From assembly GCA_016185545.1 (NCBI GenBank), contig JACPNJ010000004.1:1-41979 (forward strand): a stretch of 41,979 nucleotides of DNA, given 5' to 3'. Within the stretch, counting starts at the first letter, position 1, and each line of letters begins with the position of its first letter. Source of the stretch: Candidatus Yanofskyibacteriota bacterium (lineage in GTDB: Bacteria; Patescibacteriota; Minisyncoccia; 2-02-FULL-40-12; IGHO2-01-FULL-4-A). The notes beneath the pieces are model-generated. The model saw only the letters and a program-made list of their open reading frames with translations, made no database searches and was not told the origin of the DNA. The position numbers were made by a program, and so were the translations under genes. Below are positions 486-23,426 of the stretch, in pieces.

Positions 486-1061
486 TTGGCCCACATAATT
501 GATCTTAAAAATAGGCAGACAGAATTAAAACCGGACAATAGTCTGGATTTAAATTTGAAATCGGATCACTCTCAACTAGAAACTAGAAACCAGAAACTAG
601 AAACTAGAATTATTTCTTGGTCCGGTCAATTACATTATTATTCAAATGTAAGAGTCACAGTTTTGGCGGCAACAGTACTTTTTGCCATTGCCGCGTTAGT
701 ACAGATTTTCCAAAAAAATATTATAACCACCATTTTTTTCGCTATGCTGGGAACGGTTTTACTGCTTAACGCCAAAAATAAACAGGAGTTAGGCGAGTTT
801 GAAATAAATCCAGCAGGTATAAAGACAAACAATAATCTGCTACGTTACAAAGAGCTGAAATCATTTTGGATAGAATATGACCCGGTTCTGGACATAAAAG
901 AGTTAAGTTTGCAAACTAAGAAATGGTATCTGCCTTATGTCAAAATTCCAATAACCGGACAAAATCCTGTACAAATTCGTCTTGCCTTGCTAGAGTTTTT
1001 ACCGGAAATTGAACATAAGGATACACTGGTTGAAATATTGGCAAGAAAATTAGGGATATAG
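486..1061 (+). CDS. hypothetical protein with two predicted transmembrane segments (TTG start)
   Basis: 191 aa ORF with hydrophobic stretches VTVLAATVLFAIAALV and IITTIFFAMLGTVLLL. Contains an in-frame heptamer array. Confidence 0.7.
   Translation: MAHIIDLKNRQTELKPDNSLDLNLKSDHSQLETRNQKLETRIISWSGQLHYYSNVRVTVLAATVLFAIAALVQIFQKNIITTIFFAMLGTVLLLNAKNKQELGEFEINPAGIKTNNNLLRYKELKSFWIEYDPVLDIKELSLQTKKWYLPYVKIPITGQNPVQIRLALLEFLPEIEHKDTLVEILARKLGI
574..608 (+). repeat. heptamer tandem array (AACTAGA/AACCAGA) x5, in-frame in ORF 486-1061
   Basis: AACTAGA AACTAGA AACCAGA AACTAGA AACTAGA read directly. Confidence 0.9.
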
Positions 1062-1222
1062 AATCTGGCGGCAACGCCTTCTATCACCACTTGCTCACCC
1101 AGCGAGTTCGCCGCATTCCGTCAAAAGCGTGGATTTTGCTTGCAGTGTTTTACTATTATACTGCTCGCAAACCGTGCAATCCACTCTTTTGACGGTGCTA
1201 TAAGGCATTGCCGCCAGATTCT
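1060..1222 (-). repeat. family A structured palindromic repeat, copy A1
   Basis: Ends AGAATCTGGCGGCAACGCCTT / AAGGCATTGCCGCCAGATTCT. The core, on the reverse complement, is near-identical to copies at 9109-9295 and 23227-23416. Confidence 0.9.
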
Positions 1223-1246
1223 AAAAATTGTAAATTACACTGAAAA

Positions 1247-9108: not shown

Positions 9109-9295
9109 GTCAAAAATTATTTAAAGCGAGGCCATTATGCCTCCTAGCACCGTCAAAAGAGTGGATTGCATGGTTTGCGAGCAGTATAATAGTAAAACAC
9201 TGCGAGCAAAATCCACGCTTTTGACGGAACGTAGAATTCTCGCTGGGAATTCAAGTGGTGATAGGAGGCATAATGGCGAGCGGATAATTTTTGAC
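9109..9295 (+). repeat. family A structured palindromic repeat, copy A2
   Basis: Terminal GTCAAAAATTAT/ATAATTTTTGAC, outer stem GGCCATTATGCCTCCTA / TAGGAGGCATAATGGC, core shared with A1 and A3. Confidence 0.92.
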
Positions 9296-9303
9296 GTAGC
9301 AAG

Positions 9304-10245
9304 CTATTTCTGATGAACCGGGCAGAAATGCGCTGATCGGCTGTTTATCACGATACGTTTGATTATGCCGCCATCGTGTTTCTGGCATTTCTCGCCGGTC
9401 AACTGATAGGCCTTCTGCATATTCTGGTAATTGCCGAATTTGCCTTCAAGCGTGCGATAATCCTGTTGGCTGTCGCCTTTGGCGCCAATCGCTTTTTTCA
9501 AAACAAATTTTATGTATTTATAAATCGTGGCCAACTCTTTATCTGTCAGCTTCTCAACACGACGTAGGGGTGCGACTCCGGCGTACCAAAGTATCTCATC
9601 AGAGTAAATATTGCCGATGCCGGCAATCACAAACGGATCCATAAGAACCTTTTTGATTACTCCCCTCTTATGCCGCATTAATTCCTTAAATTTTGCTAAT
9701 GTAAATTTTGGATCAAGCGGTTCTGGCCCAAGTTTGCCGATTTCGTTTATATTTTCAATTTTATCGGTATCTCCAAGGAATATCTTGCCAAACCGCCTAA
9801 CATCAGACAGACCGAGCATATAACCATTGCTTAAGAAAATTATAAAACGAATAAACCTATTATATGGATCATCCTGCAATGGTCCCGAAATTGTGCTAAC
9901 CCATTTTTGATCTCCAGTTTCTAGTTTAGTTTTGAATTTTGAGTTATAGTTTTGAGATTTTAGATTTGAGATTTGAGATTGTTTTATCCACTTTCCATAC
10001 AATAAGTGCCCGGATATTTTCTGATGAATTATCAAGGTCTTGCCGCCAGACAAATCAATCATAATATATTTTGCCCGCCGGCGAGCGCGTAGAATTTTGC
10101 GGCCTTTTATTTCGTGCACAAAGTCGGTCAACTTGTGTGTTTTGATGGTCTTCGCCCAGTCAGTCCAGGCACCCACAATTTTAAGGCCAACCGCTTTTTT
10201 ATTGAGACCTCTGACTATAGTTTCTACTTCCGGAAGTTCTGGCAT
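9304..10245 (-). CDS. mutM: formamidopyrimidine-DNA glycosylase (Fpg/MutM)
   Basis: MPELPEVETIVRGL N-terminus; IHQKISGHLLYGKW; VIAGIGNIYSDEILWYAGV; C-terminal zinc-finger-like region. Confidence 0.95.
   Translation of the reverse strand: MPELPEVETIVRGLNKKAVGLKIVGAWTDWAKTIKTHKLTDFVHEIKGRKILRARRRAKYIMIDLSGGKTLIIHQKISGHLLYGKWIKQSQISNLKSQNYNSKFKTKLETGDQKWVSTISGPLQDDPYNRFIRFIIFLSNGYMLGLSDVRRFGKIFLGDTDKIENINEIGKLGPEPLDPKFTLAKFKELMRHKRGVIKKVLMDPFVIAGIGNIYSDEILWYAGVAPLRRVEKLTDKELATIYKYIKFVLKKAIGAKGDSQQDYRTLEGKFGNYQNMQKAYQLTGEKCQKHDGGIIKRIVINSRSAHFCPVHQK
9911..9981 (-). repeat. degenerate heptamer array, in-frame in mutM
   Basis: TCTAGTT TAGTTTT GAATTTT GAGTTAT AGTTTTG AGATTTT AGATTTG AGATTTG AGATTG, period 7. 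Confidence 0.75.
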
Positions 10246-21696: not shown

Positions 21697-22084
21697 GTCA
21701 AAAATTACAAACCTCGCTCCACCCCCTAATTTTTCTTCCTGTATCATGCCTTCATTACAAATTGCGGTCGCTGGCTAAATTGCTGGACACAGATTGGTTC
21801 CCCGTTTACCGCTTGAAAACTGCGTCACTTCGTTCCTTGTTTTACTGCGCGTTTTCCGACCAATCTTTGCGTTACCCAGCAATTCTTGCTCGTCGAAGGT
21901 TCCAATGTGTGGCAGGGACCCACGAAGTGGGACGCCACATAACATTGGAATCGCTGTTAACGCCAGCTCCCTTATTTGCTTTGCCCCGTAGTGAAGCCTT
22001 CGGCTTCTACTACTGGGGTATAATCGGCAGATAATGTCATAAAAATCAGGGGGTTGCGCTTGTGTTAGGTTTGTAATTTTTGAT
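21697..22084. repeat. large multi-arm palindromic element D
   Basis: Outer GTCAAAAATTACAAACCT/AGGTTTGTAATTTTTGAT and ACCCCCTAATTTTT/AAAAATCAGGGGGT, plus three internal long hairpins. Confidence 0.85.
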
Positions 22085-23070: not shown

Positions 23071-23226
23071 TCTTATTAGTAAGATTGATTATTGTGCGAA
23101 GAGCTACGAGCAGCATCGGTCTCCTTTGACTTGGTGCTTTTTTTTGTAAAAAATAGCGAGTCCAACTATTGTTTCGTATGAAACATTGGTGGATGAATGA
23201 GCCGGTATTTATAAAGATGCCCCATT

Positions 23227-23416
23227 AAAATTATCTGCAGGCGAGGCCATTATGCCTCATAGCACCGTCAAAAGAGTGGATTGCACGGTTTGCGAGCAGT
23301 ATAATAGTAAAAGTAAATCACTGCGAGCAAAATCCACGCTTTTGACGGAACACAGCAACCTCGCTGGGGTTGCTAGTGGTGATAGGAGGCATAATGGCGA
23401 GCGGATAATTTTTGAT
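23227..23416 (+). repeat. family A structured palindromic repeat, copy A3
   Basis: Same core as A1/A2; outer stem GGCCATTATGCCTC..GAGGCATAATGGC. Confidence 0.92.
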
Positions 23417-23426
23417 GGGGCAATAA

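What the first reader, a model, noticed from the sequence alone, without database searches (positions are those of the whole stretch)
9109..9295. Family A: three dispersed ~160-190 bp elements with a covarying three-way-junction fold
A1 (1060-1222, inverted), A2 (9109-9295) and A3 (23227-23416) share a near-invariant long arm: CACCGTCAAAAGaGTGGATTGCA.GGTTTGCGAGCAGTATAATAGTAAAA..CACTGCRAGCAAAATCCACgCTTTTGACGGAA. They also share a short arm with invariant loop TCGCTGG but changed stems: A2 GAATTC/GAATTC, A3 AGCAACC/GGTTGCT, A1 degenerate. The closing outer stem is rewritten too: A1 GGCGGCAATGCCTT/AAGGCGTTGCCGCC versus A2/A3 GGCCATTATGCCTC/GAGGCATAATGGC. Conserved loops with compensatory stem changes suggest selection on a folded RNA or ssDNA. 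All three lie directly 3' of genes; A1 begins within a stop codon and A2/A3 sit between convergent genes. I do not recognise the element.
Basis: partly seen in the sequence, partly recalled or inferred. Interest (0 to 1): 0.88.

Follow-up and report, generated by a model that had tools for sequence, protein, structure and literature searches.

The report
Mobile folded palindromes in tiny-genome bacteria
The window holds three copies of a previously unlisted, roughly 165-bp repeat that folds into a three-armed hairpin; it has spread to many places in the genomes of related Paceibacteria (tiny-genome bacteria), mostly right behind genes, and its stems keep changing while the fold and two loop motifs stay fixed, which suggests something recognises it as a folded single strand.

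Summary
The three copies belong to a dispersed family: 18 copies in this genome, with matches in 21 of 45 genomes of its order and 25 of 387 of its class. The fold is a three-way junction with extraordinary covariation: in 26 aligned copies 97.6% of paired cells are standard pairs and 31 of 43 pairs show changes on both sides. The bulge GCAYGG and loop TCGCTGG hardly change. Outer arms of about 15 bp differ between copies but match their own partner. Orthologous sites without the element lack any palindrome, so the arms came with the insertion. Copies mostly abut gene 3' ends, with the conserved strand antisense to that gene (47 against 18). One insertion is carried in frame inside a glycosyltransferase gene. 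Rfam, phage and plasmid collections have no match. Neither Y1/RAYT transposases nor reverse transcriptases track its distribution. Best reading: a new family of palindromic miniature mobile elements, recognised as a folded single strand and moved in trans by an unidentified enzyme. It behaves like REPs and Rickettsia palindromic elements, but is not a REP by test, and RPE membership was not tested by sequence.

The parts
1059..1223 (-). A1: whole element, core 1074-1208 plus outer arms (TAGAATCTGGCGGCAA...TTGCCGCCAGATTCTA); left edge overlaps the stop codon of ORF 486-1061
9109..9295 (+). A2: whole element with type-2 outer arms and terminal inverted repeat GTCAAAAATTAT/ATAATTTTTGAC
9137..9271 (+). 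A2 model core (135 nt three-way junction)
9150..9227 (+). A2 long arm (P2) with one-sided bulge containing GCAYGG and tip loop containing TATAAT
   Evidence: bulge conserved in far relatives
9234..9252 (+). A2 short arm (P3), stem GAATTC/GAATTC around invariant loop TCGCTGG
23219..23421 (+). A3: core 23252-23392 with type-2 arms and outer inverted repeat GCCCCATTAAAATTAT/ATAATTTTTGATGGGGC

Best explanation
The three loci are copies of a non-autonomous palindromic mobile element of about 165 bp (135-nt core plus arms of about 15 bp). When the DNA is single-stranded, one strand folds into a three-way junction. A trans-acting enzyme, not identified here, recognises that folded strand through the GCAYGG bulge, the TCGCTGG loop and the junction, and moves or copies it to new sites. 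Survivors are mainly in short gaps behind genes, or rarely in frame inside a gene. Shown: dispersal, presence/absence at orthologous sites, covariation, conserved loops, strand asymmetry, no palindrome at empty sites. Inferred: that recognition is of ssDNA rather than RNA, that loop conservation reflects the mobilising enzyme, and that the enzyme acts in trans.
For: Dispersal: 18 copies in the own genome, with matches in many relatives. Presence/absence at orthologous sites: L011 site occupied in G000 and G002 but empty in G003; L007 site occupied in G000 and G003 but empty in G002 and G006; L033 site occupied in G002 but empty in G000; L053 site occupied in G006 but empty in G005; no hairpin in the empty sites. 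Arms are loosely homologous between loci (GAGCTTGGTGAATAATGCC-like, by eye) and match their own partner: proximal score 20 or more in 42% of copies against 0.35% when arms are taken from other copies. Fold selected: 97.6% paired, 31/43 pairs changed on both sides; 1118 double-change cells against 265 in shuffles. Strand: G.T 104 against A.C 39 in stems, leaving out the loop-closing T.G. That strand is antisense to the nearest gene 3' end in 47 of 65 copies, p = 0.0004, and its sense exit has no T enrichment, so a role in the neighbour's mRNA is unlikely. Insertion carried in frame inside a GT4 glycosyltransferase, L186 and L204, with a degraded remnant in G010.
Against: No mobilising enzyme was identified. 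Y1 transposases are about as common without the element (11/24 genomes) as with it (13/21), p = 0.37, and RAYTs here are flanked by unrelated palindromes. Reverse transcriptases do not separate the groups either. No consistent target-site duplication or target motif was seen, and species are too far apart (about 80% identical) to fix the insertion point to the base. Movement itself was not observed. The G.T/A.C count is taken on an alignment fitted to a model that favours G.U, and the counts of orientation and covariation treat related copies as independent.
Confidence: 0.6

Rival explanations
1. A functional structured RNA: the core is transcribed, often antisense to the neighbouring gene, and acts as a small RNA or protein-binding RNA; dispersal is incidental.
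For: Covariation and invariant loops are typical of structured RNAs; a TATAAT-like motif sits in the tip loop of many copies; G.T exceeds A.C on one strand.
Against: Many copies per genome at non-orthologous sites, gain/loss between congeners, insertion inside a coding gene, TATAAT missing in distant members such as L134, no Rfam relative. No expression data available.
Confidence: 0.2
2. A bidirectional transcription terminator or mRNA 3'-end stabiliser placed behind genes.
For: 65 of 103 copies have a gene 3' end within 60 bp of the core; very stable hairpins.
Against: T content 3' of the sense exit equals background (2.53 against 2.55 per 9 nt); at the antisense exit 3.07, only 18 of 100 copies with 5 or more T. 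Conserved loops and a three-way junction are not needed for termination; the conserved strand is usually not the one in the neighbour's mRNA.
Confidence: 0.08
3. A REP-type element moved by one of the resident REP-associated tyrosine (Y1) transposases.
For: Four such genes in the own genome (NCBIfam REP_Tyr_transpos below cut-off); strand-specific recognition of folded ssDNA by loops and bulges is the published mode of TnpA-REP (PMC8266576).
Against: The resident genes are flanked by their own short palindromes, not by this element; element-rich genomes G004, G016 and G022 have no Y1 match, and Y1 genes are common without the element.
Confidence: 0.1

Closest known systems
REP / REPIN elements with RAYT (TnpA-REP) transposases
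   Same: Dispersed, mostly intergenic palindromes near gene ends; strand-specific; unpaired bases recognised in folded single strand (PMC8266576).
   Different: REPs are 20-50 nt single hairpins preceded by GTAG; this is a three-way junction of 135 nt plus arms, without conserved GTAG, and not found beside the RAYT genes read here.
Rickettsia palindromic elements (RPE)
   Same: About 150 bp palindromic repeats, many copies, can sit in frame inside genes (PMC10969869).
   Different: Different lineage; mainly behind genes rather than inside them; fixed bulge and loop motifs with covarying stems. Sequence was not compared with RPE families.
MITEs derived from insertion sequences
   Same: Short, non-autonomous, inverted terminal arms, dispersed.
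   Different: No parent IS seen, arm sequences differ between copies, no consistent target duplication.
Integron attC sites
   Same: Imperfect palindromes recognised as folded ssDNA (own knowledge).
   Different: No GTTRRRY core site in A2, no cassette array; copies are mostly singletons behind unrelated genes.

Membership tests
REP (RAYT-mobilised) | 20-50 nt palindrome preceded by conserved GTAG-type tetranucleotide | tested here: not met
   135-nt three-way junction; the four bases before P3 vary (GTAG in A2, mostly GCAG or others)
REP (RAYT-mobilised) | Copies flank the cognate Y1 transposase gene | tested here: not met
   None of 19 Y1 loci read had the element in the flanks printed (about 200 bp each side); they carry their own short palindromes
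REP (RAYT-mobilised) | Occurs with a RAYT gene | tested here: not met
   13/21 element genomes against 11/24 without, p = 0.37; three element-rich genomes have none
Rickettsia palindromic element | In-frame insertion in protein-coding genes | tested here: met
   Two intact copies and one remnant in a GT4 gene, but rare: most copies are intergenic
Rickettsia palindromic element | Sequence similarity to an RPE family | not tested
   No RPE collection searched
IS-derived MITE | Terminal inverted repeats shared with an autonomous IS, target-site duplication | tested here: inconclusive
   No autonomous copy among matches; no constant direct repeat by eye; gene content of whole genomes could not be scanned
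Intrinsic terminator | T-run directly 3' of the hairpin | tested here: not met
   Sense exit at background; antisense exit only slightly higher
Any Rfam family | Score above gathering threshold | tested here: not met
   Only tRNAs in the window; nothing near a gathering score at E up to 10 in six divergent copies
Integron attC | RYYYAAC / GTTRRRY core sites | tested here: not met
   A2 read directly: no GTTRRRY on either strand

The most novel reading that the evidence does not exclude
A new class of structure-recognised mobile element: a folded single strand (ssDNA or RNA) with a conserved three-way junction is itself the transposition substrate of an undescribed Paceibacteria enzyme, and the self-complementary arms are rewritten at each site while staying matched.
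Probability: 0.25. Interest if true: 0.85.

Novelty: new variant of a known kind. Interest (0 to 1): 0.6.

Why it matters
Bacteria with genomes under 1 Mb are generally thought to carry few selfish elements (own knowledge). Here one order carries a dispersed, structurally conserved element that changes gene ends and, once, a protein. The very strong covariation makes the recognised structure readable, so the recognising enzyme can be sought by direct binding, and it would add a case to the small set of elements recognised as folded single strands.

Tried and rejected
Insertion into pre-existing terminator hairpins: rejected because orthologous empty sites have no palindrome. Inverted duplication of host sequence at insertion: rejected because arms at different loci resemble each other and are absent from the empty sites. 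RAYT as partner: no co-occurrence and no flanking copies. Reverse transcriptase as partner: RVT_1 genes are in 35/45 genomes regardless of the element; one adjacent case in G006 looks like another gene 3' end. Tip-loop TATAAT as a promoter: missing in distant members and the spacing to TTGCAY is about 13 nt. Phage or plasmid origin: no match; the single viral-contig pattern hit L058 does not continue as an element. In-frame element in Fpg: no inverted repeat. Literature searches returned no description of this repeat (open-access library only).

Full report
OBSERVATION. A1, A2 and A3 are present as described, with cores at 1074-1208 (-), 9137-9271 (+) and 23252-23392 (+). A1 starts in the stop codon of the ORF ending at 1061; A2 and A3 lie between convergent ORFs. 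The gene after A2 is Fpg and the gene after A3 is a ComM-like Mg-chelatase; the other neighbours have no Pfam match.

EXTENT. BLAST with A2 found 15 strong places in the 853-kb genome, itself included. A covariance model built from 26 copies (R1) raised this to 18 distinct copies; the remaining hits on that list are echoes on the opposite strand of the same palindromes, so raw match counts per genome overstate copy number. At the genome level 21 of 45 genomes of the order, 25 of 387 of the class and one further genome outside the class in a sample of 384 carry it. One carrier is Candidatus Yanofskybacteria CG10_46_23, which places the order within Paceibacteria/Parcubacteria (lineage from general knowledge).

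ANATOMY. The core is a three-way junction: outer stem P1, a long arm P2 with a one-sided bulge containing GCAYGG and a variable tip, and a short arm P3 with loop TCGCTGG. In distant members the stems are wholly different in sequence but the bulge and loop remain, with few changes. On 26 sequences 97.6% of cells are standard pairs, 31 of 43 pairs have changes on both sides and the covariation score is 0.549 against 0.171 in shuffles and at most 0.119 in slid controls. On 118 rows (114 distinct, including 13 opposite-strand echoes) the figures are 96.9%, 41 of 43 and 0.633; that alignment was fitted to the model and leans towards it. Beyond the core, arms of median 15 bp continue P1. Arms pair with their own partner far better than with those of other copies (median local score 21 against 11), yet share a loose consensus, so they are read as part of the element. 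Many copies, including A2 and A3, have a second arm type (AGCGAGGCCATT/AATGGCGAGCG), several of them inside a longer inverted repeat ending ATAATTTTTGATGGGGC.

WHICH STRAND. Leaving out the loop-closing T.G position, stems contain 104 G.T and 39 A.C combinations on the strand as written, which points to that strand as the one kept foldable. The model treats G.U as a pair, so some bias is expected. Of 65 copies with a gene 3' end within 60 bp, the written strand is antisense to that gene in 47 and sense in 18 (p = 0.0004; copies are not fully independent, a few are counted from overlapping loci, and genes were taken as long ORFs). T content after the hairpin is at background on the sense side. 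A role in the neighbour's mRNA is therefore unlikely to be what maintains the fold.

MOBILITY. Flanks of 18 copies were sought in eight genomes. Four sites are occupied in one species and empty in another, and the empty sites carry no hairpin. At L011 the empty genome has overlapping genes (ATGA) where the occupied ones have the element, and the upstream gene takes its last codons and stop from the arm. Orthologous occupied copies are no more alike than unrelated ones (80%, 85% and 93% identity against best matches elsewhere of 93-98%), which fits turnover or exchange between copies. One insertion lies in frame between the two domains of a GT4 glycosyltransferase in G013 and G022, with a degraded remnant holding P3 in G010; other orthologues have a much shorter linker.

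WHAT MOVES IT. Not established. Y1 transposases (NCBIfam REP_Tyr_transpos below cut-off) occur in 24 of 45 genomes of the order without relation to the element (13/21 against 11/24, p = 0.37), and the 19 Y1 loci inspected show their own short palindromes instead. RVT_1 genes are in 35 of 45 genomes; they look like DGR-type enzymes from the LPLGNLTSQ motif (own knowledge, not tested; NCBIfam's best match is a group II intron model below cut-off), and do not separate carriers from non-carriers. No autonomous, gene-bearing copy was seen.

COMPARISON. It works most like REPs, which are recognised as folded single strands through bulges and loops (PMC8266576), and like Rickettsia palindromic elements, which insert in frame (PMC10969869). 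It is not filed under REP because three defining features were tested and not met. Membership of RPE was not tested by sequence. Rfam has no match and the phage and plasmid collections have none. The literature searches covered open-access papers only.

VERDICT. A real, well-supported new family of folded palindromic repeats that behaves as a miniature mobile element. The fold and its selection are shown; mobility is strongly indicated by gain/loss; the ssDNA substrate and the trans-acting enzyme are inferences.

Noticed in passing
L085-L088 (G000:C1:260000-264000, C4:44500-48500, C5:47500-51500, C5:93200-97200): The own genome has four REP-associated-tyrosine-transposase-like genes flanked by their own short palindromes (for example CTTAGAGGTTGAGCCTCTAAG); this looks like several separate REP/RAYT pairs in one small genome.
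   Followed up: partly
L148, L055, L183, L045: Other palindromes have inserted into the TCGCTGG loop or stems of some copies (for example CCTGCCTGCCGGCAGGCAGG in L183), giving nested hairpins.
   Followed up: partly
L238:2677-2808: An element copy starts 39 bp after the end of a reverse transcriptase gene in G006; RVT_1 genes, mostly of about 330-400 aa, are in 35 of 45 genomes of the order.
   Followed up: partly
window 22018-22081: Part of another dispersed repeat, 91% identical to a stretch upstream of copy L009 and also found at G000:C1:127171 and C7:16662.
   Followed up: no
L051 and L012/L144 flanks: Some copies sit inside a longer palindrome with motif GCCATAGTGCCTTTTGGGACTTC, possibly an older member of the same or a related family.
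   Followed up: no
window 9304-10245 (-): Fpg carries an insert of roughly 40 residues (QISNLKSQN...) in its N-terminal domain; no inverted repeat found there.
   Followed up: partly
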